Shown: positions 12,244 through 46,050 of the stretch, piece after piece | How the letters are laid out: each line of letters opens with the position of its first letter | Position numbering within the stretch: the stretch's first letter is position 1 | IMG/VR virus record: IMGVR_UViG_3300031758_000004 | Span: 124,001-188,000 of that record | DNA: 64,000 nucleotides | Source of the DNA: a virus | Direction: 5' to 3' (one strand) | The notes under the pieces: model-generated | Told to the model about the DNA's origin: nothing | Databases searched by the model: none | The model's input: only the letters and a program-made list of their open reading frames with translations | Program-made: the position numbers and the translations under genes

Positions 12244-12543
12244 ATGCTGATTAGCGAAATTGGAATTAGAGGTTTTAAATCATTCGGAAATAATGAACAA
12301 GTCGTAAAATTAAATACAGAAAAAGGAGAACTTATCTTACTAGTTGGAAACAACGGAAATGGAAAATCTGTTGTTGATAAAACTGAGATTGAGATAAAAT
12401 TTTCAATAGATAATTTGAATATAGATGATTTTTGTACTTTTTTGGAAATAATGGATGGGGGAAAGGAATATATTGAATATATAAAAGAAAATAATTATTC
12501 TTTATATGAGCAATATATTAAAAAACAAAAATCAATTAGATAA
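12244..12543 (+). CDS. gp46/SbcC-like ATPase N-terminal fragment fused to split-intein N-half
   Basis: 99 residues. Residues 1-41 are the start of an SbcC/Rad50/T4 gp46-type ATPase: IRGFKSFGN, then the Walker A stretch GNNGNGK. The expected continuation is absent. From S42 the sequence SVVDKTEIEI has the spacing of an intein block A, aligning with NrdJ-1-type starts (C-L-V-G-S-S-E-I), but with Ser in place of the usual Cys1. The frame stops at 12543. The rest of the ATPase is encoded from 14034 after an intein C-half. Residues 42-99 are therefore read as IntN. After trans-splicing, Lys41 would join the Ser at 14403, restoring GNNGNGKSS. The 3' end overlaps the endonuclease gene by 38 bases. 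Confidence 0.8.
   Translation: MLISEIGIRGFKSFGNNEQVVKLNTEKGELILLVGNNGNGKSVVDKTEIEIKFSIDNLNIDDFCTFLEIMDGGKEYIEYIKENNYSLYEQYIKKQKSIR
12367..12540 (+). other. split intein, N-terminal half (IntN)
   Basis: 58 codons starting at the Ser codon 12367-12369, inside the Walker A motif at the GK/S position, a classic intein insertion point. Block A is readable. Block B is missing here and found in the C-half, so the split site is unusually early. Confidence 0.7.
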
Positions 12544-14044
12544 TTATCTAATTGATTTTCACCCAGATAAAAAAAATGAGATCTTAAATCTATTTAAAGA
12601 TTTTAATTTTGAATGTGGGAAGACCTCATTTATATCAAAAATGAAGTCTTTAATAGGAATGCCAAAGTTTGGTAAAAAAACTCTAATATATTGGTTAAGT
12701 AGAGGCTGGGATGAAGAAACCGCTAAAATAAAAAGAGTACCAACAATTAAAAATGTTGAAACATCTCCTATGAATATAAATTTTTGGTTAAAAAGGGGAT
12801 TTAGTTTAGAAGATTCTGAATATAAAATAAAATCTCAACGAAAAATGAACAAGGAATATTGGATGGAGAGAGGATATACATTGGAAAATTCTATAATAAA
12901 GTCAAATGAGTTTCAGAAAAATAGTAATAGTTGTTTTATATCAAAATTGGAAAATGATGTGGAGTTTAGAGAAATTATATCATCAAAAAGAAGTAATAAT
13001 ATAAATTACTGGATAAACAAAGGTTTTAATTTAGAAGAATCTAAAATTAAATTATCTAATAGACAATCAACATTTTCATTAGAAAAGTGTATTTCTAAAT
13101 ATGGATCCGATGAAGGTAAAAGAATTTGGTCAGAACGCCAAAATAAATGGCGAAAATCTTTGATGGAATCCGATTACAATGGAATCGATGATAAAGATTC
13201 TAGATCCATAGAACATTTTAAAAATAAGTATGGTGATATTTGGTTGGAAAAGTATATAGAAACTACATCATTTAAAGATAAAGAAGATATTAGATATCTA
13301 TTATCATTTGAGAATTATAAAGATATGATAATAACTCTTATAAATGATAATTTAACTTTAGCTAAAATAAGTTATAGACTTAATTATTCAGTATTATATG
13401 AAATATACAATACGAATAAAGAAGATATGTATTCATTTCTTTTGGAAAATTATGAAAAAACTTATGGAACTCCATCATATTATGAAAAAATGTATGGTGA
13501 TAAATGGGTAGATGAGTTTATAAAATCTAATAATTTTAAAGATAAAGAAGATATTGTTTTTTTATTATCTTTTGATAATTATTTTAAATTAGTAGATTAT
13601 TTAATGGAAAACTTTAGTATAACTGATATTGTTTTAAAAATAAAAAAAGTTATAGTATCATATTTTTATAAAACTACTTATGAAAAAATGTTTGAATATC
13701 TAATGTCTGTTAATCCAAGTATAAAATGCAAATATGGTTACATGAGATATTATAATAATCATCTTTGTAGAAGTTCCGGTGAGTATATGATTGCTAAATT
13801 TTTAAAATATAATGAAATTTCATATAAGTACGAAAAATTATATCCAAATTCTAAAAAAAGATGTGATTTTTATTTAATTGATCATGATATTTATATAGAA
13901 TATACAGGTATGTATAAAATCAAAAAACACAATGATAAATATAATGAAAAAAAATCATTTTGTATTGATAATAATATTAAACATTTTTTTTCAAACAATA
14001 TAGAAGAAATAGAAAATAAAATAAAAAGTATATATGGAATTTAA
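12506..14044 (+). CDS. free-standing homing endonuclease between intein halves, PD-(D/E)XK-like
   Basis: 512 residues. The N-terminal half has repeated units of the type (I/E)YW(I/M)..G(F/Y)..E(E/N)S.IK, followed by FSLEKCISKYGSDEGKRIW, then two copies of KYGD.W.(E/D)..I....FKDKEDI.(Y/F)LLSF, probably DNA-recognition repeats. The C-terminal 95 residues (RSSGEYMIAKFLKYN, then KRCDFYL, IYIEYTG and a Tyr-Asn-Glu-Lys stretch) follow the GE..IA...D.Y...E pattern of Vsr/PD-(D/E)XK-type nucleases. Such endonucleases are known from fractured genes, where they sit between two split-intein-bearing gene halves. It overlaps both neighbours (38 and 11 bases), so the locus is one transcriptional unit. The mobility role is inferred; the position is the strongest argument. 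Confidence 0.7.
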   Translation: MSNILKNKNQLDNYLIDFHPDKKNEILNLFKDFNFECGKTSFISKMKSLIGMPKFGKKTLIYWLSRGWDEETAKIKRVPTIKNVETSPMNINFWLKRGFSLEDSEYKIKSQRKMNKEYWMERGYTLENSIIKSNEFQKNSNSCFISKLENDVEFREIISSKRSNNINYWINKGFNLEESKIKLSNRQSTFSLEKCISKYGSDEGKRIWSERQNKWRKSLMESDYNGIDDKDSRSIEHFKNKYGDIWLEKYIETTSFKDKEDIRYLLSFENYKDMIITLINDNLTLAKISYRLNYSVLYEIYNTNKEDMYSFLLENYEKTYGTPSYYEKMYGDKWVDEFIKSNNFKDKEDIVFLLSFDNYFKLVDYLMENFSITDIVLKIKKVIVSYFYKTTYEKMFEYLMSVNPSIKCKYGYMRYYNNHLCRSSGEYMIAKFLKYNEISYKYEKLYPNSKKRCDFYLIDHDIYIEYTGMYKIKKHNDKYNEKKSFCIDNNIKHFFSNNIEEIENKIKSIYGI

Positions 14045-14402
14045 AATAGATCTAAAAAGGCTGAATATTCTAAATAATAAACTGTCTATCATCAATAAAG
14101 GTGTTAAAGTAAATACTCCAAATGGTTGGAAAAATATAAAAGAAATTGGTATAACATCACCTAATTCCGAAAAAATAATAATAAAAACAAAGGATTTTGA
14201 ATTGATTGGTTCTCCAAATCACAGAGTTAAATATTTAGAAAATTGGATTTTCTTAAAAAATCTAAAAATAGGTGATTTTATAAATACTAAAAATGGTGTA
14301 CAGACTATTTTATCAATATTAAAAGATGATAAAAGAGAAGATTTATGGGATATTGAAGTAGATGGTCATGAATACTATTCTAATGGAATATTAAGTCATA
14401 AT
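14034..14402 (+). other. split intein, C-terminal half (IntC)
   Basis: 123 codons. VNTPNGWKNI, then GSPNHRV (block B histidine), then LKIGDFI, then block F/G WDIEVDGHEYYSNGILSHN ending in His-Asn. The next residue (+1) is Ser at 14403. Block B in the C-half resembles the atypically split AceL-TerL type of intein. Confidence 0.8.
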
Positions 14403-15992
14403 TCATCATTTCTATCTTCCTTTGAATATACACTTTATGGTAAAGTAAGAGGTGGCCGTCAAAAAAAATGGTCTACTTTATCAACTCTCCCAAATAGAAT
14501 TAATGGTGAATTATTAAATAGAATTTCATTCAATTCTAACGGTGTTGATGTTGAAATCAAAAGAGGTATTTCACCAAATAAGTTGGAACTTTGGGAAAAC
14601 GGAGTTCACAATGAAAGAGCTGGTAAATCAAATATAGATGAAAAGATTGAAAAGTATGTAGGTATGGATATTGAAACATTCAAATCTTTTATATCTATGT
14701 CTATAAATGACTTCAAAAACTTTATATCTCTTTCAAATGAAGAAAAACAACTACTTTTAGATAAACTTTTTAACTTAGAAGTAATCAATATCTTAAATAG
14801 TATTTTAAAAGATATAAACAAGTCAAATAAAACAAGAATGGCTTCTTTAAACTCTGAAATAAATACTTTAGAAGAGTCTATTGAATCAATTCAAAGATCA
14901 ATTGATAAAACTATTAAACTTTCAATTGAAAAAGAAAAATTAAATCTACAAGCTGATATTGATCGTCTTATGGAAGAAATGAATTCTAAAAAGGAAGATT
15001 ATAAAGCTCTTAAAGAAAAAGTAGAAAAGATTAAAGAAAAAGAGGAAATTTTATCAAATGAAATTGAAAATGAAAAAAAACAATACATTAATATCCAAAA
15101 TGATATTCGTAATACACAGAAAGAGATCGATCTTTATGACTCTGGTAAATGTCCCACTTGTAGAACAGATTTTAATTCTGATTACTACTCTTCTTTAAGA
15201 CAATCACTTGTTGAGAAAAAAGAGGGTTTTGAAAAAATTAAGACTGAAATAGACGAGAATATCAAAAATATAAAAGAGAAGCAACTTAAACTGAAAGAAA
15301 TTTCAACTAAAACAAATGAAACATTCAGCGAAATGAGTTTCTTTTTAAAGAACTGTAAAACTCAAATTGATCAACTAACTAAAAAGAAAGAACTTGAACA
15401 AGTTGATAACTTACCAAATGTTGACGAGTTTAAAAAATCAATTGAAGAGTTAGAAGAAAAAATGTCTTTTAGTAAAGATAATGTTACAGTTTGTAAAGAT
15501 AAAGAATTATACTATAAAGAACTATCTAGAATATTTGGTGAAGATGGTGTTAAAAAGTCAATTATTGCTGGTATTATTAAACCACTTAACCACTTTATAC
15601 ATGAGAATATAACTAAGATGGGTATTGCTTTTGATGTTAAGTTGGATGAAACATTTACAGCGGAAATCAGACAATTTGGTTCACCAATTGAAAGTGATTC
15701 ATTATCTACTGGTGAGAATAAAAAAGTAAACATTGCTATTTTAATTGCTTACTTAAAGTTAATCCGAACTAAACGACATATCAATATTTTGTTCTTAGAC
15801 GAGGTTTTCTCTTCAATTGATATCGAAGGTATAGATTCTATTTTAACACTCTTAAAATCGTTCGCAAACGAGTATAACATAAATATATTTGTTGTACACC
15901 ATGCTATCTTAAATCAAGAAATGTTCGATAGAATTTTAAAAATAAACAAAGATGTTTTCTCAACAATTGAGGAGGTAAACTTCTTAGACTAA
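14034..15992 (+). CDS. split-intein C-half fused to gp46/SbcC-like ATPase C-terminal fragment
   Basis: 652 residues. Residues 1-123 are IntC. The rest (529 residues) continues the ATPase: SSFLSSFEYTLYG right after the splice point, long coiled coils flanking a zinc hook CPTC (about residues 373-376), the ABC signature LSTGENKK (about 555), Walker B ILFLDEVFSSID (about 587) and the H-loop FVVHH. Together with the 41-residue N-fragment the extein is about 570 residues, the size of T4 gp46. With a gp47-type nuclease, not seen here, it would process DNA ends for recombination-dependent replication. Without splicing this polypeptide lacks Walker A and should be inactive. Confidence 0.88.
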   Translation: MEFKIDLKRLNILNNKLSIINKGVKVNTPNGWKNIKEIGITSPNSEKIIIKTKDFELIGSPNHRVKYLENWIFLKNLKIGDFINTKNGVQTILSILKDDKREDLWDIEVDGHEYYSNGILSHNSSFLSSFEYTLYGKVRGGRQKKWSTLSTLPNRINGELLNRISFNSNGVDVEIKRGISPNKLELWENGVHNERAGKSNIDEKIEKYVGMDIETFKSFISMSINDFKNFISLSNEEKQLLLDKLFNLEVINILNSILKDINKSNKTRMASLNSEINTLEESIESIQRSIDKTIKLSIEKEKLNLQADIDRLMEEMNSKKEDYKALKEKVEKIKEKEEILSNEIENEKKQYINIQNDIRNTQKEIDLYDSGKCPTCRTDFNSDYYSSLRQSLVEKKEGFEKIKTEIDENIKNIKEKQLKLKEISTKTNETFSEMSFFLKNCKTQIDQLTKKKELEQVDNLPNVDEFKKSIEELEEKMSFSKDNVTVCKDKELYYKELSRIFGEDGVKKSIIAGIIKPLNHFIHENITKMGIAFDVKLDETFTAEIRQFGSPIESDSLSTGENKKVNIAILIAYLKLIRTKRHINILFLDEVFSSIDIEGIDSILTLLKSFANEYNINIFVVHHAILNQEMFDRILKINKDVFSTIEEVNFLD

Positions 15993-32768: not shown

Positions 32769-35480
32769 TTATTTTAAATCTATAATTTCTACTCTATATC
32801 TTTCAGATAATACTGTGGAATTTTCAGAAATCCTAGTAACAATAATCTTTTTACCTTTATTTAAACTAAAGTATGGCTTATTAGATAACATAGAAGCAGT
32901 TGAACTATTCAAAATCATTGGTAGTGAAGCTGTTGTACCAAAACTTTTTAAACTCAAATTATTACTAACATCTAATGTGATATATGAGCTAGTCAAACCA
33001 ACCGTTGTTACTGTATATTGTCCTGAAAAATCATAAACCGAAGATGTTCCAACAAAAAAGTTATTTAAAGTTAGTGTATCACCAGCCTTTATTGAATTGT
33101 ATATTAAGTTACTACTACCATCAATTGGTACATCAATCACTGGACCTGATTTTAAAGTCATAGTTTCATTAAAGTTAATATCAAAATTAAAATCTTTCCA
33201 TAGATAAGATGAGTTTTGAGATCCATTAACTAAGTTATAACTAACTGGTAGATCTATATTACCAAGAAGTAATACCTGTGTAAGAGCAGTCGTTGTTCCA
33301 GTTATATCAGAATTTATATAAATATCCATTTTTTTATTTTGAGATGATGTTATTGTTGGATTAATATAAAACTCAACAGATTGTTTGAAATCCAAATCTC
33401 TACTCAAATAAACAGTTAATTTATCATTATTTGGTAGTGTAAATGGTACTTCATCGTTATTAGAAATATAAACTAACCAACTTTTATTTGTAGGAACATC
33501 TAAACTTAGTGGTATTATACCAGTAGCGCTATATAAATCAGTAGTTTTTATATAATCTATTTTATTATAAAGTGGATCTATACTATTTAATGATATACTT
33601 GGTGGTGACCCAGGTAGTGTAGTCACATCAATTGAATCAGATGAAACGATTTGATTAGTTGCATATAATCTTAACAAATCATTTAAACTATTAATTCTGG
33701 AATTAATGATATTAATATCAGACTGTGAATATATTAAAGATTTTAAATCTTGTAAGTCTGCTCTTAATTGATTTTGTTCAACTAAAATATTTAGAAATGA
33801 ATCATTAACAGAAGAAAGTCTTTGCATAGCTTTGTTAAATAAATTCATACTAAACATTGAATTTATTGCCTCTGGGTTATATGTTTCCTGAACATTATCA
33901 TTAATTATATTAAAATTTAAATTTAAACTAAAAGCAAATGATGTTCCATCTTGATCACTAGTTGAAACTAACTTTTTATACGTAGGGAATTTTATACCAA
34001 TTTCACTTTGTAATAAGTTATTAGCTGGATTATCTAAGAATGATATTCCATATAAGTTAGTGAATGTATTTCCTTTATCATCCTCAACAGTATAATACCA
34101 CAAAATAGCATTAAATTCAAAACTATCCGGTGGTGTGTTATTAACTTCAAGAGCATTAAACTGTTCAAAGTTAGTAATTACTCTATTAGCTAAATTCATT
34201 TTTACATAGTGACTTGTGTTAAAATCTAATGTGATACCATCCATACCAGATGTATCTACAACTGGGTTGTTTATATCACCACTAACACCAAAATAATCAC
34301 CACTTCTTCTTAAACTATCACCAGTAGATGTTTCATACGTGAAATCTAATGTATCAAATTGTCCAAAATAAGATCCTGGATAGTTTAAAGGCGAGCTTAC
34401 TATTGGTGATGTAAAATTCTCAGCTCCCATAATTTCAGCTTGGTATTGACTAGGTACAATTGGGAAAGTTAAATTTGGTTTATAATTTGTATCATACATA
34501 GTTCTGAAAAGAATATCAGGTGTCATTCCAGTATGATCTGGAATATGAGCATAAACTTCAGTATATGACCTATTTGCTTCTTGAACATTTGAAACACCAT
34601 TAATCTCACCAATATATTGAACAAGTCTATGATAAACCAATGCCGCTTGACCAGAAGACTCAGATTGAGTTCCTAATTGAGTGTTCGAAAACAGTATATC
34701 AACTACGATTCTTTGACCTCTTGTAGCATTAGATGGTATAACACTAAGTACTTTTGTATATTTACCGTCTTCTGTTGCGGAATCTAATAAATCGTTATTA
34801 TATAAATCATTATTATAAATACTCGAATTAGAAACATTATAAATTCTTATAGTATCACCAACTTTGAAGTTAGTTTCACCATTAAATTCTATTTCTAATT
34901 TATTAAGAAATCCAGACTCACCAGTTTCATAAAATGAAATAGTGTCCCAATCAACAACCTCTCTTTCTTTCCATAAATATTCAGGAAAGTATTCATCATC
35001 ATTTAAATTTCTTCTCTCAAATACTGGTAGATTACTAAAGTATTCATCATCAGGAATAGCAGGTTCAAAATCAATTAAATTTAATTTTTTACACCATTTA
35101 AAAAATAACTTTTCAGTTGTTGTTTCGAGTGAGTTTGTATTATAATAATAATCTGTATTATTTAATCTACTCTCTCTTATAACTACTTCTTGGTTAGCAA
35201 CATAATTTCTCAAAGACTCTACAATTTGATCACTAAATGATGATGGAGCCGAATAATTTTGAGATTTTTTAAAAGCACTATCAAAATCAAAATATATTTG
35301 ACTTGATTGTGTACCAGCACTTAAATTTCTTTTAGGTAAGTTTAATAAAACATATTTAGAAAAATACATTTTATAATTACTATTTTGATAAGCAGCTGAT
35401 ATATCTTCTGCTGCTCCTGGAAAAGCGTAAAAAGAAGTTCCGTTTGATTTTAATCCTTTATAAAGTGGTGTACTTGCCAT
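32769..35480 (-). CDS. large putative baseplate or tail structural protein
   Basis: 903 residues. The N-terminus (YKMYFSKYVLLNLPKR) and the following acidic region are followed by beta-rich segments. A coiled-coil-like stretch (LVEQNQLRADLQDLKSLIYS to LNDLLRLYATNQ) lies around residues 560-620, and the C-terminus is beta-rich and Ser/Asn/Thr-rich. Size, composition and location between fibre-type genes suggest a baseplate wedge or tail component. No family could be named. Confidence 0.6.
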   Translation of the reverse strand: MASTPLYKGLKSNGTSFYAFPGAAEDISAAYQNSNYKMYFSKYVLLNLPKRNLSAGTQSSQIYFDFDSAFKKSQNYSAPSSFSDQIVESLRNYVANQEVVIRESRLNNTDYYYNTNSLETTTEKLFFKWCKKLNLIDFEPAIPDDEYFSNLPVFERRNLNDDEYFPEYLWKEREVVDWDTISFYETGESGFLNKLEIEFNGETNFKVGDTIRIYNVSNSSIYNNDLYNNDLLDSATEDGKYTKVLSVIPSNATRGQRIVVDILFSNTQLGTQSESSGQAALVYHRLVQYIGEINGVSNVQEANRSYTEVYAHIPDHTGMTPDILFRTMYDTNYKPNLTFPIVPSQYQAEIMGAENFTSPIVSSPLNYPGSYFGQFDTLDFTYETSTGDSLRRSGDYFGVSGDINNPVVDTSGMDGITLDFNTSHYVKMNLANRVITNFEQFNALEVNNTPPDSFEFNAILWYYTVEDDKGNTFTNLYGISFLDNPANNLLQSEIGIKFPTYKKLVSTSDQDGTSFAFSLNLNFNIINDNVQETYNPEAINSMFSMNLFNKAMQRLSSVNDSFLNILVEQNQLRADLQDLKSLIYSQSDINIINSRINSLNDLLRLYATNQIVSSDSIDVTTLPGSPPSISLNSIDPLYNKIDYIKTTDLYSATGIIPLSLDVPTNKSWLVYISNNDEVPFTLPNNDKLTVYLSRDLDFKQSVEFYINPTITSSQNKKMDIYINSDITGTTTALTQVLLLGNIDLPVSYNLVNGSQNSSYLWKDFNFDINFNETMTLKSGPVIDVPIDGSSNLIYNSIKAGDTLTLNNFFVGTSSVYDFSGQYTVTTVGLTSSYITLDVSNNLSLKSFGTTASLPMILNSSTASMLSNKPYFSLNKGKKIIVTRISENSTVLSERYRVEIIDLK

Positions 35481-35539
35481 TTATTTAAATTTTATTTTAT
35501 ATTCTATATATAAACATTTCATATTTCCGTTTTTATTTT

Positions 35540-35547
35540 TATATTTG
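35540..35547 (+). promoter_or_regulatory. TATATTTG, Bacteroidota-type -7 box
   Basis: Match to TAnnTTTG, 18 bases before the ATG at 35566. It overlaps the alternative TTG start at 35545, which argues against that start. Confidence 0.5.
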
Positions 35548-35565
35548 TATCTCAAATTAAAAGCT

Positions 35566-35979
35566 ATGATTATTATTCAAGGTGAGATGTTAAGTGGTAA
35601 GTCAAGATTAGCAATTGACTTAGTAAAAAATAACAAGAGATCATTATATCTGACATTAGATAAGGATAATTCTGTTATTAAATCTTTAAAAGAGAATAAA
35701 ATAGAATACACATTAATGAATAAATGTCTTTTAATGGATATTAAATATAGAGTTTTGGAAAGAGGTGGTTTATTAAATAATGACTTAGACTTTGTAGTAG
35801 TAGATTCGTTAAATAAAATAACCGATAAAAAAACGTATATTGAGAAAATAAAATATTTATTAGAAGTTGAAAAAGATTTCAAAATAAAAATAATAGCAAC
35901 TATGAATACATTAAGGATGTTGGATAACATACAAAAGAAAATTGAAAATATTCCTGGTGTTGATTTTATAAATATTTAA
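35566..35979 (+). CDS. small P-loop ATPase-like protein
   Basis: 137 residues from the ATG at 35566. Walker A GEMLSGKS (residues 6-13) lies in MIIIQGEMLSGKSRLAIDL, and a Walker B-like segment DFVVVDSLNKI lies near residue 79. The spacing resembles a minimal RecA/KaiC-type core such as the short ATPase domains of DnaB or RadA relatives. There is no obvious DNA-binding domain. The gene has its own Bacteroidota-type promoter and is isolated between leftward structural genes, with a 4-base convergent overlap at its end. Confidence 0.65.
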   Translation: MIIIQGEMLSGKSRLAIDLVKNNKRSLYLTLDKDNSVIKSLKENKIEYTLMNKCLLMDIKYRVLERGGLLNNDLDFVVVDSLNKITDKKTYIEKIKYLLEVEKDFKIKIIATMNTLRMLDNIQKKIENIPGVDFINI

Positions 35980-36395
35980 GCTTCTGGTGACTGAGCTTGA
36001 GAATTTACCTCTTGAGCTTGATTACCTTCACTACCAGTTAATCCTTTAACAACTTCTTCTATCGCTCTTTGAGTTCCAGCTACGACATACTCATATAAAC
36101 CTAACTTACCAATTTTAGTAGGAGATTGATCATAGAATTTAATATCATTTAGAATTGGATCTACATCGTTTCGCCATTTAAGATAAAAATCAAATATATC
36201 ACTATCGTTTATCAAACCTTCAATTTTAGTATTTTCTGGTTCTTTGATAAATTTTTCAACAAATGAATTGAAATCACCACCACTTTTCTCAATAGTTTTT
36301 TCAATCATTTCCTTTAAATTGTCTTTAATCTCCTGAGAAATTTCAGTGTTAGACTCATTCGCTTCTGTAATAAATTGTTTATATCTCTTAATCAT
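35976..36395 (-). CDS. protein with capsid-targeting-like N-terminus
   Basis: 139 residues. The first 12 residues, MIKRYKQFITE then A, match the T4 capsid-targeting pattern MKTYQEFIAE then A closely, including the I-x-E/A cleavage site. The body is acidic and helical; the last 20 residues are Gln/Ala/Glu/Ser-rich. AATATATA lies just upstream of the start. Inferred to be a packaged internal head protein, or possibly a scaffold. Confidence 0.65.
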   Translation of the reverse strand: MIKRYKQFITEANESNTEISQEIKDNLKEMIEKTIEKSGGDFNSFVEKFIKEPENTKIEGLINDSDIFDFYLKWRNDVDPILNDIKFYDQSPTKIGKLGLYEYVVAGTQRAIEEVVKGLTGSEGNQAQEVNSQAQSPEA

Positions 36396-36423
36396 AAATT
36401 ATATATTATTTTTAAAAAATGAT

Positions 36424-39400
36424 TTATCCCCAAGTTCCTTTAAATATACCATCATACCAAATACCAGTCTCATATAAACCGCTTTCATAAATACCATTTG
36501 TCCAAATTCCGGATTTCCAATTAGCATTTGTAAACTTACTAACAATTCTTAAACCAGTATCAAATCCGTTTGTTATCGGATTGTTTAATTGAGCACCAAT
36601 TTTATCAGAGTAACAGAATTCTAATCTTAGATCATTAACTTTAACATCTAAACCATCAAATGATTTTATAAAGACTTCCCAATAACCCTTTGTTGTATTT
36701 TTAAATAAATCTTCAACGTTATTGGTTGTTACCAAATAATCTCCAACTCCGGTAGCTCCAGTAGCCCCTGAAAATTCATAAACTCCATCATAAAGAGGTG
36801 ATCCTAAAGAAAATTCAGTTGATTGAGTACCAGTAAATACAGTATTTTTCAAATAAATATCGGTATCACCAACACCCAACTTTTTAACATTTATAACATT
36901 ACCATTAGGAGCTTTAAGATTTATCATTAGATATGATAAAGACTGTGTTAAACCTGGATTAGTTTCTAAATTTATTTTAACTCTAACATTATTTATTTTA
37001 TCCTCAATTTCATCCGTGTAGAAATATTCTACAATAGAACCAGAGTAACCAGTAGATATACTTGAATTACCATAGATGCTATTAACCATTGTACCATCTT
37101 TAACATCAGATTTGAAAATACCAATATAATCACTTAATGATATATTATAATCAATATAAATCTCCGTAATTTTATTAACCTCATCTAATACACATCTTAA
37201 AATTGTATATTTTTTTGGTTCACTAAGACTTCCATATGTACTTAAACCAGAGTTGTTAAATTTATCTGTAACGTAGATAACATCTCCTATATTAAATCTA
37301 AATATACCATTTAATATAAATGAGTTATTAGTTTCATTTAGTCCTATAATTTCAATATCTTCTAGTATACCACCATGCCAAACACCTGATGTAAACTCCA
37401 TATTATATGCAATTCCACCATACCAATCACCATTTAAAAACTTACCAGTTTTCCATATTGAATACTTGTTTGTTTCCGAAGCATTTGATAATAATTTTAA
37501 GTTTGAATAGAAACTACCACCTTTAAAAGTACCACCATTCCAAGTAGCTGTTCTACTGTTATAAGCATTTGTACCAAATCTAGATAATCCATTTCTTTGC
37601 TCAAATATACCATTATACCAGATACCATTTTCAAAGTCACCACCATACCAATCGCCATCGATCCAATAAGCTGGTTCATTATCAGTATTAAAATTACCTG
37701 AATTCCAAGTACCTTCAACCCATATACCACCAATGAAACTACCATTATTCCAAGTTCCATCATTCCAGATACCATTATACCAAGAACCTTTATTCCAAGT
37801 TCCATCATACCATCTACCTGCTCTCCAAGTACCATCATTCCAAGTTCCATCATACCATCTACCTGTAAACCAAACAGATTTTGTGAAATCATCAACTTCA
37901 TCAACTTTAACAGAAAGTTTTAAGTCTCTTACATTTCTTGAATACCAGTTACCTTCATACCAATCTCCATATCTCCATTGACCAGAATACCAAGTACCAC
38001 CAAACCATCTACCAAACTCCCAAATACCTTTGTACCAAACTATACCATTCTCATCTTCACCAATTAAAGCATCTGAGATTTCAGCCTCTAATACCCAAGG
38101 ATATTTAGTATGTAGATCATCAAATGTTAGATTATCAACTAATCTAAATCTATATCTATTGTAATCAACATTAACTAAGCTATAAGTAGATCCTTCAATT
38201 TTTGTATTATCGGTATCTAATTGAATAGATTGTTTAGCTCTTTTATTTAAAGAAACATCAATTAAATCAACAGGCTCATAATTAAAGAAAGGATCTTTTT
38301 TGACATATTTAACATAACCTATATCATTACCTAAGTAAACATTTTGTCCGTAATCAACTTCTGTTAAGAAATCATATTCATTATAAACTTGTGTAACTAT
38401 ATGATAACCAAAATATTGTTGATTTAAATATTCAGATGAATATGTACCACCAATAAACTCTAAAATAACACCATCACCATTTCCCAATTCATGTTTTTCG
38501 TTACAACGAACATAAAGTTTACCATTCACATTAGCTGTATTATTAATGGAGATTTTATAATCTTTTTCCATTCTAGTTAAATTCATAGCCAACTCATTCT
38601 TATAATCCGTGTAAATTAAACCAGTTAAGTTTTGATATGTATCAACATCAGAAAGTAATATTTTTGCATATGAATCTGTTGATATCTTAAAATTAAGTTC
38701 TCTTTCATAATTATCATATGTTTGGCCACTATGTATTTCAGTTTGTTTACTAAGTCTTCTTTGAATATTATTCAATTCTTGTAAATCATCACTTATTTGC
38801 TCTAAAGTTCTTCTAGATGTAATGTTTAATTTTGATCCACCTATAGCAGTATTTAATTCGAAATTAACATTTCTATGAAACTCTATAACGTATCCAGATT
38901 TGATTGAATCATAATACTTATTTGTAACTAATAATCTTTCAGAAGAGAAAGTTCCACCTGTTGATAAATTTGCTAATGGTTGATAGATTGTTAAGTCAAT
39001 AAATGTATTAATAAAAATACTTTCCCACTCTAACTTCAAATTATCACCAAAATATATCTTATTATCTTTATAACTATAATTACCCTCAGATGCTGTCAAT
39101 CCAGCTGAATCCAAATAAACATTAGATGCTGTTAAACTACCAAACTCTAAATCATTATAGATAGGCATTGTTAAATACTCTTTTGTTGCGTAGAATGTTG
39201 GGTTAACATAATTTGTTTTATTTATACTAGTCATATAATCAAGTAGATTATATCTTGGTGTGTATCCAAATTTTAAGAAACCATCCGTATAAATTAACGG
39301 TTCTTTTATCTCTCCTTTGAATAAAATAGACCAATTTTTCAAATAACCAATATAACTTGATACACTATCCTCTATTACTAATTTCCAATCACCCTTTGCA

Positions 39401-42400
39401 TTACCTTCTATTAACAAATCATTAAAATCAACTGTTGTACTAACATAAGAATAAGAACCAGCACTTAAACCCATATTCATTTTAATTACATCCGTATAAG
39501 GAGATGAAAAAGTTCCTAATGTACCAGCTGTTGATTTAGTTGTAAATGTTGTGTTACTAAATGTGAAACCACTAATTGATTGTGATGCTCCATTCATAAC
39601 ATTTAATATTTCACCACTTGGACCAATTAGGTTTATTTTCAAATCAGATGGTCTTAAATGATATAAGTTGAAATTAACTCTAATCTCAGTTGGATAAACA
39701 TTTGAATTACAATTAAGTGTTTGTGGGACAGAGCTTGTTCCATCTGGAATACCATAATATAAAAAGTCTGATGAGTTAAATTCTAAATAATCATTATCAG
39801 AATTTACATGAATTTCTGTTGCTAAATTATAATAAGATGTGTAGTTATTAAATTTAGGATCAATTTTTAAGTAACCATCTCCATAATCACTCATTTTATA
39901 TCCTATTCCAAGCGGATGTGAATTAAAATTAGTGATTAAGTCATCTGAGTTATAAAATTTATTTAAATTCTTTAATACAATAGATGATGTTGATGTTTTT
40001 AGATTTTTTATTATATCTCCACTAAAATCCGAAAACATGTAAATATACTTATTACTATTGGTGAAATTTTCAATTCTATTAACTATGAAATTTCCTTCAA
40101 CAACACCAGATTCAATTCTTAAAACATCACCTAAATCAACATCAAAAGATTTATTATTACTAACTGCTGATGTACTATTTGTAACACCTAAAACCATCAA
40201 GTAATCTTTTAAATATAGTGTGAAATTAGATCCACCTACTGATGATATAGAAGCACCGATGTGTTTATATCTAGAACTTTGTGTACCAGTATAATTAAAT
40301 GATGGTGCTAATTTTAACAAATCAACTGTGTTTGTATTCACAAAACTGACAGTAGCCACCGTAAATTGAGTAGTTCCTGAAAATGTTTTTGATATTAAAA
40401 CTTTTGATGAGTTAGAAAGAGGATTAACAGAGTAATACTCAAATGTCTTTTCTCTATCACACCAATAGTCATACCAAGTTACTTCCGACTGCGTCATGAA
40501 ACTTGGGGCAGTAGCTCCATAAACTAAATTATTAAATGTTAATTCTGTACTTTCCGAAAAAACATTTTGTTTTATAATTGTTGAATTTGGTAATCTATAA
40601 TTTCCTTCATCAGTAAAGAAATTTAATTTACTACCCATATCATAATCTATAAATAATAGCTTTGATTTTAATTTTGAGAAAAAAGTCGAGTCTAAATCAA
40701 CAAAATCATATGATGATGAATGTGTAGATGATTTAACAAGAGTATAATTTCCACTTATTAACAAATATTCACCTCTATAATCATATAAACTATTTGCGTA
40801 TAAACTTGATATTTTCGAAGGTGCTGTTGCTGATATTATTGTATTTGAATATGTATTACCAACACCATAGTATTTAAAATCACTAATATCAAATTTATAG
40901 ATACCATCATCATTACTAAAAAAGAAATTATTAGTACCTTTTTGTTGTGTAATATTTTTTATATCACCATAATTTTTATCAAAATCAAAATATATAAAGT
41001 CACTATCTATAAAATTATTCTCATTATATGCAATTATTTTACCACCATCAACAGCCATAAAAACTAAATCCTTTGGTGATGAAATTGATTGTGTATAGTA
41101 TGAGTAACTTAATCCCCAACCACTTATTGATGTTTTCCATAAATCATTTATGTGATCTACTAAAACATACTCATCTTCATCATCTATTTGTCTAGATACT
41201 CTTCTCTTCCTAGCACTCCAACCATTTATATCTTCTGAGATTTCTAAAAATACACCACTCTTACCACCAATATAAAATTTAGTATCAGTCACAAAAATAA
41301 CCTTATTATAATTGTATTCTCTAAAACTTGTAAAATCTAATAACTGCCATTTTTCACCACCATCATTAGTTATATAAATAGTATTGTAATCACCTACGAT
41401 AACACCTCTCAAATTATTAACAAATGATATTGATCTTAAATTTGTATAGGTATCTAATTTTATATTTTTTATTTCGAAATCATGTTTACCTATTCTTAAT
41501 AAAGTTGTATTATCACCACAAATCCAGTAATAGTTTTCAGTACTTGTTATACTTCTTAAATTATCTTTATATTTACAAGGTATTATATTTGAATAACCAT
41601 CTTGAGTATTAACTATTGTACCAAATTCACCAACTGCAATTGTTCTTTCCGGTATACTGTAAGTTACACCACTTATATAAATAGATTGAGTGCCATGTCT
41701 AAAAATATCATAATAGTTAGTTTCAAATAAGTTATTATAATCTACTCTGTTTCTTAATAACCAATTATGTTTTTCAACGAATTCCATTGGCTCATTTCTG
41801 AATGATGTTGGATAAAACCCGTTTAATAATCTTCTAACACTAAACTGTTTATTTTGATTTGTTGTACCCATTTTAACATAAACGCTTAATCTAGAACATT
41901 TTTCATAGTCATCCAAGTCATTTAACTTAACTAATTTTCTATTCCTAAATTCATATAAGCCGTTCTCATTACTATAATATTGATATTCTATATCTAAACC
42001 TTCCTCATTAACTATTGTGTAAGGTCCTTTAAAATATTCATCTGGATTAACAGATATATCTAATATCTCAAATGTTACTTGGTCTTTAACTAAAACTTTG
42101 TGGCCATCTTTTAACTTAATATCATCTATATAATAGTTATCCAACTCTAATGTTAAATCAATTTGTTGTGTAGTAGCTACATCAACTTGAATATAATTAG
42201 CTAAAATATCTTTCATCAACCTTTCCGGTGTAAAAAGATTTTTTAAAGTAAGACTATATTCTTTTAAGTTTTTTGTGTAAAAATCATATTGAGAGTTTGT
42301 ATCAATTGGAGTTGGAAATTTTGTCGGTTGTGGTGTATAAGCAAAATTAGAACTTAATGTACTAACAAACCAGTTTCTTGGTTTCCAAGCATTAATAACA

Positions 42401-42885: not shown

Positions 42886-44751
42886 ATGGCTAAACGAGAT
42901 TTAAAATCAGAAATCGACGAAGGGATTCAAGATTATGAACACAGAAAAACATCAAGAAAGAAAAATTCATTATCTAAAGATGAATTTAATAAATCAAATG
43001 TTCAGTTAACTCCTAAACAACATGATCTCTATAAGGGTATTAGAAATAATATTCTAAGTGTAGTTCATGGACCAGCTGGTACCAGTAAAACATTCACAAC
43101 TTGTTATACAGCTTTAGCTTTATTAGCTGATAAGAAAGTTGAAAAAATTATTATTACTAAACCAGTTCAAGAATCCGGTGAGAATTTAGGTTCTTTACCT
43201 GGAACTATAGCTGAAAAAATTGATCCTTATAAACAATCTTATTATACAACGTTTTGTAAAATAATTGGGAAACAAAATACGGATTTTCTTTTTTCAACTG
43301 AAGAGATAAAATTTGAGCCACTTGCTTACATGAGAGGTTCTACTTATGATAATTGTATAATGTTACTTGACGAATGTTTTACTGGTGACTCAAGAGTAGT
43401 TACAAACCATAAAAAAAGAGGATCTTTTAATTACCTTAGAATGAAAGAAATTGTTAATTATTTCAAAATGGGTAAAGAAATTTATGTATCCAGTTGGGAT
43501 GAAAATAAAAAAATAGTTGAAAATAAAAAAGTAACGGGAGTTTTTGAAAATGGAATTAAAGATATTGTTAAAATATCGGTTAAAGATAGAGTTAAACCAT
43601 TAAAAACAACAATAAATCATCCATTTTCCGTATTCAGAGATGGTGAAATTAAATGGGAAGAGGTTAAAAACTTAACCATTGGTGATAGAATATGTAGATA
43701 TAAGAATACCGGAACGAATGATTCAACTATATTAACTAATGACTCTTATGATATAATATTAGGTATGTGCTTGGGTGACTCATCATTATTACCAAATAAA
43801 CAATTAAAAAAATCATATAGAATTTCGACAAACCATTCTATAAAACAAATTGAATATATGGAATTTAAAAAAAGTATATTTGAAAATATATCATCATATA
43901 GAAATTCATTGAAGTCTGGATATACAGGTGAACCACAATGTGGGTTTCAAACTAAATCAATTAATATATCTGAAAATTTTTATAATTCACTATATAAAGA
44001 CTCGAAAAAAACAATTAGTAATGATATTGAGAGATGGTTTACATTAAGAACATTATCCATATGGTATATGGATGATGGATCGGTTTCAAAATCAAATGGT
44101 TGTGTTACATTTTCTACCAATTCAATGAGTTTCACAGAGGTCCAAATATTATCAAATATAATTAAAAATAAATTTGGATTAGAAGGTAGTGTTTATAAGA
44201 CATCTAAAGGTAATATTTTAGTACTAAATAAAATAAACTCATTGAAAATGTTTAATTTGACTTCTAAATATATACATCCCTCAATGTTATATAAACTAAA
44301 TAATAGTTTAGAAAGTAATTTTGATAGAAATTTATACAATATAACATATAATGAAAATTTATCAGTAGTCGATATTGTAGATATACAAAATTCAGAACCT
44401 GAAATTGTATATAATATAGAGGTTGATGGTAACCATAATTATTTTGTTGAAAATATATTAGTTCATAATTGTCAAAATGCAAATATTAAACAACTTATGT
44501 TATGGGTTACTCGTTTGGGTAATGATTCAAAAGCTGTTATGATGGGAGATACATCACAATATGATGTGAGAAGAAGAGATTCTGGTTATGTAGATTTTAT
44601 TAAAATGGTTAATGGAATGGATGATCTTTTTATGTTTGAATTTGAAAATCAAGATATTGTTAGAAATAAATTCCTAGTTGAAATAGCAAACAGATATGAT
44701 AAATATCGTTTTGAAGAAGAAGAGAAATATAAAAATAATAAAAGAGATTAA
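42886..44751 (+). CDS. phoH: PhoH-like ATPase interrupted by a LAGLIDADG intein
   Basis: 621 residues before splicing. The host protein (about 256 residues after splicing) is PhoH-like: Walker A GPAGTSKT (62-69), ITKPVQESGE, LAYMRGSTYDNCIMLLDE with Walker B ending at Glu163, then CQNANIKQL and VMMGDTSQYD. An intein of 365 residues (C164 to the His-Asn before 44470) separates LLDE from CQN. PhoH proteins are widespread phage ATPases of the helicase-like family, and some are linked to RNA. The start at 42886 follows an A/T-rich leader; the gene ends at a strong terminator. Confidence 0.9.
   Translation: MAKRDLKSEIDEGIQDYEHRKTSRKKNSLSKDEFNKSNVQLTPKQHDLYKGIRNNILSVVHGPAGTSKTFTTCYTALALLADKKVEKIIITKPVQESGENLGSLPGTIAEKIDPYKQSYYTTFCKIIGKQNTDFLFSTEEIKFEPLAYMRGSTYDNCIMLLDECFTGDSRVVTNHKKRGSFNYLRMKEIVNYFKMGKEIYVSSWDENKKIVENKKVTGVFENGIKDIVKISVKDRVKPLKTTINHPFSVFRDGEIKWEEVKNLTIGDRICRYKNTGTNDSTILTNDSYDIILGMCLGDSSLLPNKQLKKSYRISTNHSIKQIEYMEFKKSIFENISSYRNSLKSGYTGEPQCGFQTKSINISENFYNSLYKDSKKTISNDIERWFTLRTLSIWYMDDGSVSKSNGCVTFSTNSMSFTEVQILSNIIKNKFGLEGSVYKTSKGNILVLNKINSLKMFNLTSKYIHPSMLYKLNNSLESNFDRNLYNITYNENLSVVDIVDIQNSEPEIVYNIEVDGNHNYFVENILVHNCQNANIKQLMLWVTRLGNDSKAVMMGDTSQYDVRRRDSGYVDFIKMVNGMDDLFMFEFENQDIVRNKFLVEIANRYDKYRFEEEEKYKNNKRD
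43375..44469 (+). other. full-length intein with LAGLIDADG endonuclease domain
   Basis: 365 codons. Cys1 block A CFTGDSRVVT, block B TTINHPF, LTIGDRI, then LAGLIDADG motifs IILGMCLGDSS and LSIWYMDDGSV, and block F/G VYNIEVDGNHNYF..NILVHN. The +1 residue is Cys. All splicing residues and both acidic endonuclease residues are present, so both splicing and homing may be active. Confidence 0.9.
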
Positions 44752-44753
44752 AT

Positions 44754-44783
44754 AAAAAAACCAGTCATTTGACTGGTTTTTTT
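44754..44783. terminator. bidirectional terminator
   Basis: Stem AAAAAAACCAGTC/GACTGGTTTTTTT with an ATTT loop, between convergent phoH and the 421-residue gene. Confidence 0.85.
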
Positions 44784-44784
44784 A

Positions 44785-46050
44785 TTATAGACCATCAAAT
44801 GGATCTAAAGGATCTAACTCAATTCTACCATTCTCTCTATTCTCTCTATTTGAAGATTCAATTTCATCGAAAAGTTCCATTATCACCAGACCATCAACAC
44901 CATTGACACCGGATGTACCGGATGTACCGGAGACACCATTGACACCTGATGGACCTACATCTTCTAAAGAAATACCTCTTCCTCTACGAATCCTCTCAGT
45001 AACACGAAGAGGTCTTGGAATCTCACGAGGTTCTTCACGAACTAGTCTTGGATTTTCATCTTCAATTGGAATTTCACTCCAATTAAAAGCATCATTATCA
45101 AATGTGAATGTCATATCATCATCACTAATATCCTCATCTTCTGGTAAGAAACCTCTACTCGACGTTAGAATATAGTCAAAGTATTTTAAATCATTATTTG
45201 AGAATCTTCCTTCTTTAACATTATAAAACTTAAATGTATCTAAATAAGGATAAGTTTCAAAATTTGATTTTTCCAATTTAATAGAAAGATTTAATCTCTT
45301 CTTTTTACCATCAACAAGGAAGTATAACTCAGATTTAGCATCCTGTCTCCATTTATAAATGTAACCATTTTCATCAGCCCATTTTTTAAGGATATCAACT
45401 TGATGATCAAAGAATGAATAAACTCTATCCATTACTTTCCATTCTGTTCCATTTTCATCAAAAACTTCACTCTCCCAAAGTATAGCACGTGCTTTAACCT
45501 TTTCTTCATCATCAAAAAGAACCAACATCTTGATATTTGGATTTACTGTATAGAGTTCCATAAATGAATTTCTTTCACTTTGTCTCATACAAGAGTTCCA
45601 AAGAGTACCATTTATATAACCATTATCTCTGTAATAGTTATCTTCTAAGTAATACTTTTGAATATCTTTACCCTCAACCACTTTAAGATTTTTACCATCT
45701 TCTGAAAAATATGATTTATAAGCATTTACAAATTTTTCAATCTCAGCATCATTAATTTTAAATTCACTCAATGAAAACTCAGTATAGAATTTTTTAATAA
45801 ATCTACCAATCTTTATTTTAACTCTACTTCTACTCTCAAATGGATTTTCATCTTTATCCATTTTAGATTTTGGTAAATATGAAATAGTATCATACTCACC
45901 TTCTACGGTTGAGATATAATTACCCTCATCTTTTAAGTGAGTACCAATAGCACCACTCGACATAATCTGTGATATTATAAATCTATTGTTAGCAAATCGT
46001 AAAAAATCTAACAATCTATCTTCTAAAATCAAATTTGTAAGTCTTAACAT
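44785..46050 (-). CDS. phage protein with WNSCMR motif and collagen-like segment
   Basis: 421 residues. The N-terminus MLRLTNLILE then D could be a capsid-targeting-like leader with an I-x-E site. The core (INGTLWNSCMRQSERNSF, LYTVNPNIKMLVLFDDE, KARAILWE, VMDRVYSFFDH) resembles a hypothetical family I have seen in large phages; its function is unknown. Residues of about 370-392 (GPSGVNGVSGTSGTSGVNGV) are collagen-like triplets of the same GTS type as in the fibre gene at 30566. The C-terminus is acidic. The mixed features, a conserved core plus a collagen segment, are unusual. Confidence 0.6.
   Translation of the reverse strand: MLRLTNLILEDRLLDFLRFANNRFIISQIMSSGAIGTHLKDEGNYISTVEGEYDTISYLPKSKMDKDENPFESRSRVKIKIGRFIKKFYTEFSLSEFKINDAEIEKFVNAYKSYFSEDGKNLKVVEGKDIQKYYLEDNYYRDNGYINGTLWNSCMRQSERNSFMELYTVNPNIKMLVLFDDEEKVKARAILWESEVFDENGTEWKVMDRVYSFFDHQVDILKKWADENGYIYKWRQDAKSELYFLVDGKKKRLNLSIKLEKSNFETYPYLDTFKFYNVKEGRFSNNDLKYFDYILTSSRGFLPEDEDISDDDMTFTFDNDAFNWSEIPIEDENPRLVREEPREIPRPLRVTERIRRGRGISLEDVGPSGVNGVSGTSGTSGVNGVDGLVIMELFDEIESSNRENRENGRIELDPLDPFDGL

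What the first reader, a model, noticed from the sequence alone, without database searches (positions are those of the whole stretch)
12244..15992. Fractured gp46/SbcC gene: split intein halves with a homing endonuclease gene between them
Seen: the ATPase is cut at GNNGNGK/S in Walker A. An intein N-half follows, then a 512-residue nuclease-like ORF in another frame, then an intein C-half ending in His-Asn and Ser+1, and the rest of the ATPase with zinc hook, signature motif and Walker B. Known: fractured genes with split inteins and Vsr-like endonucleases exist in phage metagenomes, mostly in other DNA-metabolism genes. Inference: without trans-splicing the recombination ATPase has no Walker A, so replication would depend on the intein.
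Basis: partly seen in the sequence, partly recalled or inferred. Interest (0 to 1): 0.9.

Follow-up and report, generated by a model that had tools for sequence, protein, structure and literature searches.

The report
Split intein fracturing phage gp46 gene
In this large uncultured phage the gene for a key DNA-recombination ATPase is broken in the middle of its ATP-binding site by a homing-endonuclease gene, and the two half-proteins carry complementary pieces of a self-splicing intein that should rejoin them; the trick is known, but this host gene was not found reported, and the same phage breaks two more essential genes in the same way.

Summary
Window 12244-15992 holds gp46/SbcC cut at GNNGNGK/SSFL: a 58-aa intein N-part (Ser1), a 512-aa homing-endonuclease (HEN) ORF, and a 123-aa intein C-part ending SHN/S. 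The joined protein aligns without a gap at the junction to intact gp46 in four related phages; two further IMG/VR records carry the identical arrangement; no second gp46 was found. The C-part's closest sequence and fold relative is the VidaL intein (predicted fold TM 0.73, rmsd 1.3 A). The split lies before block B, as in atypically split inteins. Beyond the finding: the same phage has a fractured gp41 helicase (same P-loop GK/S site, related HEN), a fractured NrdA (GIY-YIG HEN) and two contiguous LAGLIDADG inteins. One HEN DNA-binding module retrieved 80 loci (the finding's own among them), 75 with an intein C-part; at least 44 of 53 distinct junctions lie in a Walker A motif. Nine other contigs have a fractured gp46-family gene, so this is not unique. 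Distinctive: Ser1 (every other resolved junction is Cys1) and an unusual nuclease subtype. Verdict: new member of the known 'fractured gene' class. Splicing and cleavage are inferred, not shown.

The parts
12244..12366 (+). gp46/SbcC N-extein, 41 aa, ending in the Walker A piece GNNGNGK (12346-12366)
   Evidence: 41/41 residues identical to intact gp46 of L005
12367..12543 (+). intein N-part, 58 aa, Ser1, block A SVVDKTEIEI plus an N2-like stretch LNIDDFCTFLEI
   Evidence: aligns with block A and N2 of TerL inteins
12528..12559 (+). perfect 32-nt palindrome spanning the IntN stop codon, inside the start of the HEN ORF; role unknown
   Evidence: RNA hairpin z = -2.7; stem 16 nt against at most 10 in 200 shuffles
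12506..14044 (+). homing-endonuclease-type ORF, 512 aa: N-terminal YWxxxGxxxEEA / SLEKCIxKYG...RQxKW DNA-binding-like repeats, C-terminal PD-(D/E)XK-like nuclease domain (about residues 413-512)
14034..14402 (+). intein C-part, 123 aa, with block B (His codon 14220-14222), block F (WDIEVDG) and block G ending His-Asn (14397-14402)
14403..15992 (+). gp46/SbcC C-extein, 529 aa from Ser+1: zinc hook CPTC (15150-15161), signature LSTGE (15702-15716), Walker B LFLDE (15789-15803)
   Evidence: (PHROG 77, 6.5e-63; SbcC_Walker_B 6.2e-5)

Best explanation
A mobile element made of an atypically split class-1 intein plus a homing-endonuclease gene sits in the Walker A codons of the phage gp46/SbcC ATPase gene. 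Shown by sequence and comparison: the element's boundaries, its position between K and S of GNNGNGKSS, intein motifs and predicted Hint fold, empty sites in relatives, and the same layout in dozens of viral contigs. Inferred: two polypeptides are made (41-aa extein + IntN; IntC + 529-aa extein); the halves associate; Ser1 performs the N-O shift, Ser+1 the transesterification, and the terminal Asn cyclises with help from the penultimate His; this gives an intact 570-aa gp46 with a working P-loop. Also inferred: the HEN cuts gp46 alleles that lack the element, and recombination repair copies the whole IntN-HEN-IntC block into them. Because the cut lies inside the nucleotide-binding motif, imprecise loss of the element should destroy the ATPase, which would help it persist.
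For: Exact gap-free junction against four intact gp46 genes. Identical arrangement in two further records. Intein C-part: PDB sequence hit VidaL 6vgv E 8.1e-7, then gp41-1; tblastn hits to TerL and UvsX inteins; HMM E 1.5e-18; AlphaFold model pLDDT 87 with best PDB match VidaL 6vgv (E 1.3e-7, TM 0.73, rmsd 1.3 A), the matches at E <= 0.001 being inteins or Hint-type BIL domains. Block B His, block F Asp and terminal S-H-N are invariant among eight aligned C-parts. HEN repeats shared with HENs of other fractured genes and a nuclease domain whose top fold match is I-Bth0305I. 75 of 80 loci carrying this HEN module have an intein C-part in the locus; at least 44 of 53 distinct junctions read as Walker A. 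Same phage: fractured gp41 at the same GK/S point.
Against: No splicing or cleavage data. Ser1 is unusual: every other resolved N-part in the family begins with Cys. The HEN lacks the canonical E-F-x-G-x-Y-W-H motif of most relatives, and its Foldseek E-value is only 0.077. The DNA-identity profile against L005 shows no obvious co-conversion tract. All copies of this exact element are identical, so selection on the intein or HEN cannot be measured. A gp47 partner was not identified in the partial genome.
Confidence: 0.9

Rival explanations
1. The intein is dead (Ser1 a degenerate replacement of Cys1) and gp46 is a pseudogene or is replaced by another nuclease; the locus is a decaying relic.
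For: Ser1 instead of the family's Cys1; the genome record is incomplete, so another gp46 cannot be formally excluded.
Against: All three ORFs are fully open; block B His, block F Asp, terminal His-Asn and Ser+1 are intact; exteins are conserved through zinc hook, signature and Walker B; no other gp46 in this or sister records and one each in the 635-642 kb relatives; gp46 is 77-79% identical in protein to L005 while DNA identity is 53-82% per 90-nt window, as under purifying selection. Ser1 inteins are known to splice (cysteine-less inteins, PMC12707363).
Confidence: 0.06
2. One polypeptide is made by ribosomal frameshifting through the two overlaps, so the element is a cis intein with an embedded endonuclease rather than a split one.
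For: IntN/HEN and HEN/IntC overlap by 38 and 11 nt; a strong palindrome lies at the first overlap.
Against: In relatives the N-part and HEN ORFs are often separated by a gap instead (e.g. L060 3421/3425, L089 3544/3548, L129 3323/3377), so there is no conserved overlap or slip site; the palindrome is absent from the relatives tested; split inteins need no fusion.
Confidence: 0.03
3. A group I or II intron, or simple insertion of a free-standing endonuclease, interrupts gp46, and the intein likeness is chance.
For: Another gene of this phage seems to be interrupted by an HNH-like ORF.
Against: No Rfam intron match; intein HMM and fold matches are far beyond chance; the coding junction is exact only if the intein residues are removed.
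Confidence: 0.01

Closest known systems
Fractured genes with split inteins and free-standing homing endonucleases (Dassa et al. 2009, NAR 37:2560; the paper itself was not available here)
   Same: IntN / endonuclease ORF / IntC layout in phage DNA-metabolism genes; endonuclease related in fold to I-Bth0305I.
   Different: Host gene is gp46/SbcC; the nuclease is a subtype without the G-x-Y-W-H motif.
Atypically split inteins VidaL (PDB 6vgv/6vgw) and, from general knowledge, AceL-TerL
   Same: Closest in sequence and fold; block A and N2 in the N-part, block B onward in the C-part.
   Different: Ser1/Ser+1; N-part 58 aa, against about 25 aa for AceL-TerL as recalled; different host gene.
Fractured UvsX of Pseudomonas phage MIJ3/PA5oct and fractured PhoH of huge phage LR756500
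   Same: Related HEN repeats and same IntC type, inserted in Walker A.
   Different: Inserted two residues earlier (GxxG/xGKS or T) and Cys1.
Fractured gp46-family genes in L061, L082, L083, L084, L091, L104, L113, L125 and L128 (IMG/VR)
   Same: Walker A GK/[ST] insertion in a gp46-family gene (PHROG 77 in the six products scanned), with a HEN and an IntC.
   Different: Cys1; EDxHD or GIY-YIG-like nuclease; in the intein tree seven of them form a separate clade (98/98) and L061 pairs with the window on a long branch. A common origin of the window's intein and that clade is not rejected (p-AU 0.057).
Cysteine-less split inteins (Aes123 PolB1, CL, LCGC14; PMC12707363, PMC11923092)
   Same: Ser1 and Ser/Thr+1 nucleophiles.
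   Different: Those are PolB inteins, described as typically split; this one is split before block B. One non-catalytic Cys remains in the N-part.

Membership tests
Class-1 intein (Hint) | Cys/Ser nucleophile at position 1 followed by block A | tested here: met
   Ser1, SVVDKTEIEI aligns with block A of TerL inteins
Class-1 intein (Hint) | Block B His, block F, block G His-Asn and a +1 Cys/Ser/Thr | tested here: met
   invariant H, D and S-H-N columns; Ser+1
Class-1 intein (Hint) | Hint fold | tested here: met
   IntC model best PDB match VidaL E 1.3e-7, TM 0.73; the assembled pair was not modelled, since a joined sequence is not accepted by the tool
Class-1 intein (Hint) | Insertion at a conserved host site with empty alleles in relatives | tested here: met
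   four intact gp46 alleles
Class-1 intein (Hint) | Protein splicing activity | not testable with these tools
   needs expression
Fractured gene | Gene halves with IntN and IntC and an endonuclease ORF between them | tested here: met
Fractured gene | Endonuclease of the EDxHD / I-Bth0305I type | tested here: inconclusive
   top fold hits I-Bth0305I and Vsr but weak E; canonical G-x-Y-W-H absent, same subtype in L059, L077, L101
Atypically split intein (VidaL/AceL type) | Split between blocks A/N2 and B, short N-part | tested here: met
   block B is in the C-part; N-part 58 aa
gp46/SbcC-Rad50 ATPase | Walker A, zinc hook, signature motif, Walker B | tested here: met
   all present together only after joining the exteins

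The most novel reading that the evidence does not exclude
One lineage of homing endonucleases with a shared DNA-binding module (YWxxxGxxxEEA ... SLEKCIxKYG) is specialised on the conserved DNA of P-loop (Walker A) codons and has carried split inteins into many unrelated phage ATPases (terminase, gp41, gp46, PhoH, Clp, UvsW-like helicase and, with related repeats, UvsX), while exchanging its catalytic domain among at least three nuclease types. In the window's phage such elements would sit in two machines, gp46 and gp41, that homing repair itself is thought to use.
Probability: 0.45. Interest if true: 0.65.

Novelty: new member of a known kind. Interest (0 to 1): 0.52.

Why it matters
It adds the recombination ATPase gp46 as a host of fractured genes (no such report in the open-access papers searched) and shows a phage in which three enzymes of DNA metabolism (replicative helicase, recombination ATPase, ribonucleotide reductase) are each in two pieces that must be rejoined by different split inteins. 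The Ser1/Ser+1, atypically split pair is a candidate catalytically cysteine-less splicing tool. The family survey makes a testable claim: one endonuclease scaffold is tied to P-loop coding sequences across unrelated ATPases. gp46/gp47, UvsX and gp41 are listed among T4 functions with a known or possible part in homing (PMC2988022), so the elements partly occupy genes of the machinery they need.

Tried and rejected
Intron hypothesis: no Rfam intron match. Second gp46 copy: none found. Frameshift fusion: relatives have gaps rather than conserved overlaps. Palindrome at the IntN stop as a general regulatory feature: not found in 12 relatives; the phage's own gp41 junction has only a 6-nt stem and its NrdA junction an 11-nt stem; left unexplained. 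Direct Pfam, NCBIfam and PDB sequence searches with the HEN gave nothing useful; PHROG 559 gave a weak match. The search for related loci with single sequences returned mainly the same phage; with the IntC alignment it failed for lack of conserved stretches. Dassa et al. 2009 is not in the library. Two family searches failed on wrong coordinates and were repeated. Whether all gp46 inteins are one lineage or independent arrivals could not be settled (p-AU 0.057). gp47 was not convincingly found in the record.
Full report
Setting. The window is positions 124001-188000 of a 191,442-bp IMG/VR virus record. Its gp46 is 74-79% identical to that of L005 and of two huge-phage records of 635 and 642 kb, so the record is probably a fragment of a much larger genome. 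An identical 4300-bp stretch occurs in two other IMG/VR records.

Anatomy. Window 12244-12543 encodes 41 residues of gp46/SbcC ending in GNNGNGK and then SVVDKTEIEIKF...LNIDDFCTFLEI..., a 58-residue intein N-part. Window 12506-14044 encodes a 512-residue protein in another frame. Window 14034-15992 encodes a 123-residue intein C-part ending GILSHN and then SSFLSSFEYTLYGK... to the end of gp46. Joining GNNGNGK to SSFL gives a 570-residue protein that aligns without a gap at the junction to intact gp46 in L005 (all of the first 60 residues identical), LR745206, LR756502 and LR756504. Zinc hook CPTC, signature LSTGE and Walker B LFLDE are all in the C-part; the P-loop exists only after joining. 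PHROG 77 (SbcC-like) matches the C-extein at 6.5e-63.

Intein evidence. By sequence the best PDB relative is the VidaL intein (8.1e-7), followed by gp41-1. In phage genomes the relatives are terminase and UvsX inteins. An HMM built from six such inteins, without the window, finds the C-part at 1.5e-18. Across eight aligned C-parts the block B His, block F Asp and terminal S-H-N are invariant. An AlphaFold model of the C-part (pLDDT 87) matches VidaL 6vgv first, TM 0.73, rmsd 1.3 A; the matches at E up to 0.001 are inteins or Hint-type BIL domains. Block B lies in the C-part, so the split is of the atypical (VidaL/AceL) type.

Endonuclease. The N-terminal half has repeats YWxxxGxxxEEA and the module SLEKCIxKYGxxEGxxIWxxRQxKW. 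The module is shared with HENs of the gp41 gene of the same phage, of LR756500 and beside TerL of Caulobacter phage Cr30; the MIJ3 UvsX HEN shares the YWxxxG-type repeats. The C-terminal domain (helix-strands-helix-strand-helix; pLDDT about 80) has I-Bth0305I as top Foldseek hit, then Vsr; E-values are weak (0.077, 0.12, 2.5), so this is support, not proof. It lacks the E-F-x-G-x-Y-W-H motif found (in some form) in 39 of 54 related HENs, but L059, L077 and L101, in Clp-type ATPase genes, share its subtype. A further group (for example L085, L094, L128) ends in sequences that look GIY-YIG-like by eye; this was not confirmed by a profile. The catalytic domain appears to be swapped on one DNA-binding scaffold.

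How general it is. Scanning 2.9 million viral contigs with the HEN module gave 80 loci, two of them the same-phage records. In 75 an intein C-part lies in the locus. Of 53 distinct junctions, a script that looked for an upstream ORF ending in a GK or GxxG motif plus an N-part resolved 45; 40 end in GK and four in GxxG immediately before the intein, and one (L126) looks spurious. Because the script required a P-loop-like ending, 44 of 53 is a lower bound on P-loop junctions among those tested, and the loci are the best 80 of 116, so it is not a frequency for the whole family. Hosts include terminase, gp41, Clp-type ATPases and PhoH; UvsW-like helicases appear from the C-extein side only. L061, L082, L083, L084, L091, L104, L113, L125 and L128 have a fractured gp46-family gene; PHROG 77 was confirmed for L061, L083, L091, L113, L125 and L128. 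Seven of their C-parts form a clade (98/98) apart from the window; L061 pairs with the window on a long branch. One origin for the window and the seven clade members is not rejected (p-AU 0.057; L061 was not in the tested set). Among resolved N-parts, Ser1 is found only in this element.

Same phage. gp41 helicase is fractured at ETNNGK/SLWMQN with a 403-aa HEN (record 34096-37188) and is intact in LR745206, LR756502 and LR756504. NrdA is fractured with a GIY-YIG HEN (record 38281-42162) and is uninterrupted at the site in LR756502 and LR756504; its intein has block B in the N-part, a canonical split. A PhoH-like gene in this window (42886-44748) and an NAD(P)H-oxidoreductase-like gene in the sister record carry contiguous LAGLIDADG-type inteins.

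Mechanism. Shown by comparison: boundaries, motifs, predicted fold, empty sites, repeated layout. Inferred: two chains, trans-splicing by Ser1 and Ser+1 with Asn cyclisation, and homing driven by HEN cleavage of empty alleles. Dependence of replication on splicing is plausible, because the P-loop is complete in neither chain and no other gp46 was found, but the genome is incomplete.

Known or new. The layout is the known fractured-gene arrangement (Dassa et al. 2009, cited through PMC6892783 and PMC7090010; the paper itself was not available), and the split site is that of VidaL/AceL inteins (AceL from general knowledge). Five open-access papers contain both 'intein' and 'gp46'. Passages of two were read and report no gp46 intein; the other three were judged by title and abstract only, so novelty of the host gene is not certain. 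This is a new member of a known kind, with a rare nucleophile combination and an unusual nuclease subtype. Its wider interest lies in the P-loop-focused family and in the concentration of inteins in one phage.

Noticed in passing
G000 record 34096-37188 (outside the window; L010 15096-18188): Second fractured gene: gp41/DnaB-like helicase split at NNGK/S by an intein N-part (Cys1), a 403-aa HEN with an EFNGDYWH motif, and an intein C-part.
   Followed up: yes
G000 record 38281-42162 (L011 281-4162): Third fractured gene: ribonucleotide reductase NrdA with a canonically split intein and a GIY-YIG endonuclease ORF between the halves.
   Followed up: partly
window 42886-44748: PhoH-like gene with a contiguous LAGLIDADG intein inserted at the Walker B motif (LLDE/C...HN/CQN).
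   Followed up: partly
G001:C1:40520-42436 (minus strand; L047): NAD(P)H-dependent oxidoreductase-like gene with a contiguous LAGLIDADG-like intein (C1...VHN/C), in the sister record beyond the end of this one; host gene and endonuclease class judged by eye.
   Followed up: partly
G000 record 42997-45144: A TROVE/Ro60-like gene (by eye) appears interrupted by an HNH-like ORF (43500-44192); possibly an intron or another insertion.
   Followed up: no
L028 (LR756500.1 36397-45017): Fractured PhoH gene in a 462-kb huge phage: GKAG/C... intein N-part, 433-aa HEN, C-part, SHN/TGKT.
   Followed up: partly
L026 (Pseudomonas phage MIJ3, 2185-5203): Fractured UvsX/RecA at GESG/SGKS with a 481-aa HEN; the MIJ3 passages read describe only the PolB split intein.
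   Followed up: partly
L029 (Caulobacter phage Cr30, 2629-5347): A HEN of the same family sits directly upstream of an uninterrupted terminase large-subunit gene, without an intein.
   Followed up: no
window 12528-12559: Perfect 32-nt palindrome without a G+C core at the intein N-part stop codon; other strong hairpins in the window look like terminators. Not found at the corresponding junction in 12 relatives.
   Followed up: partly
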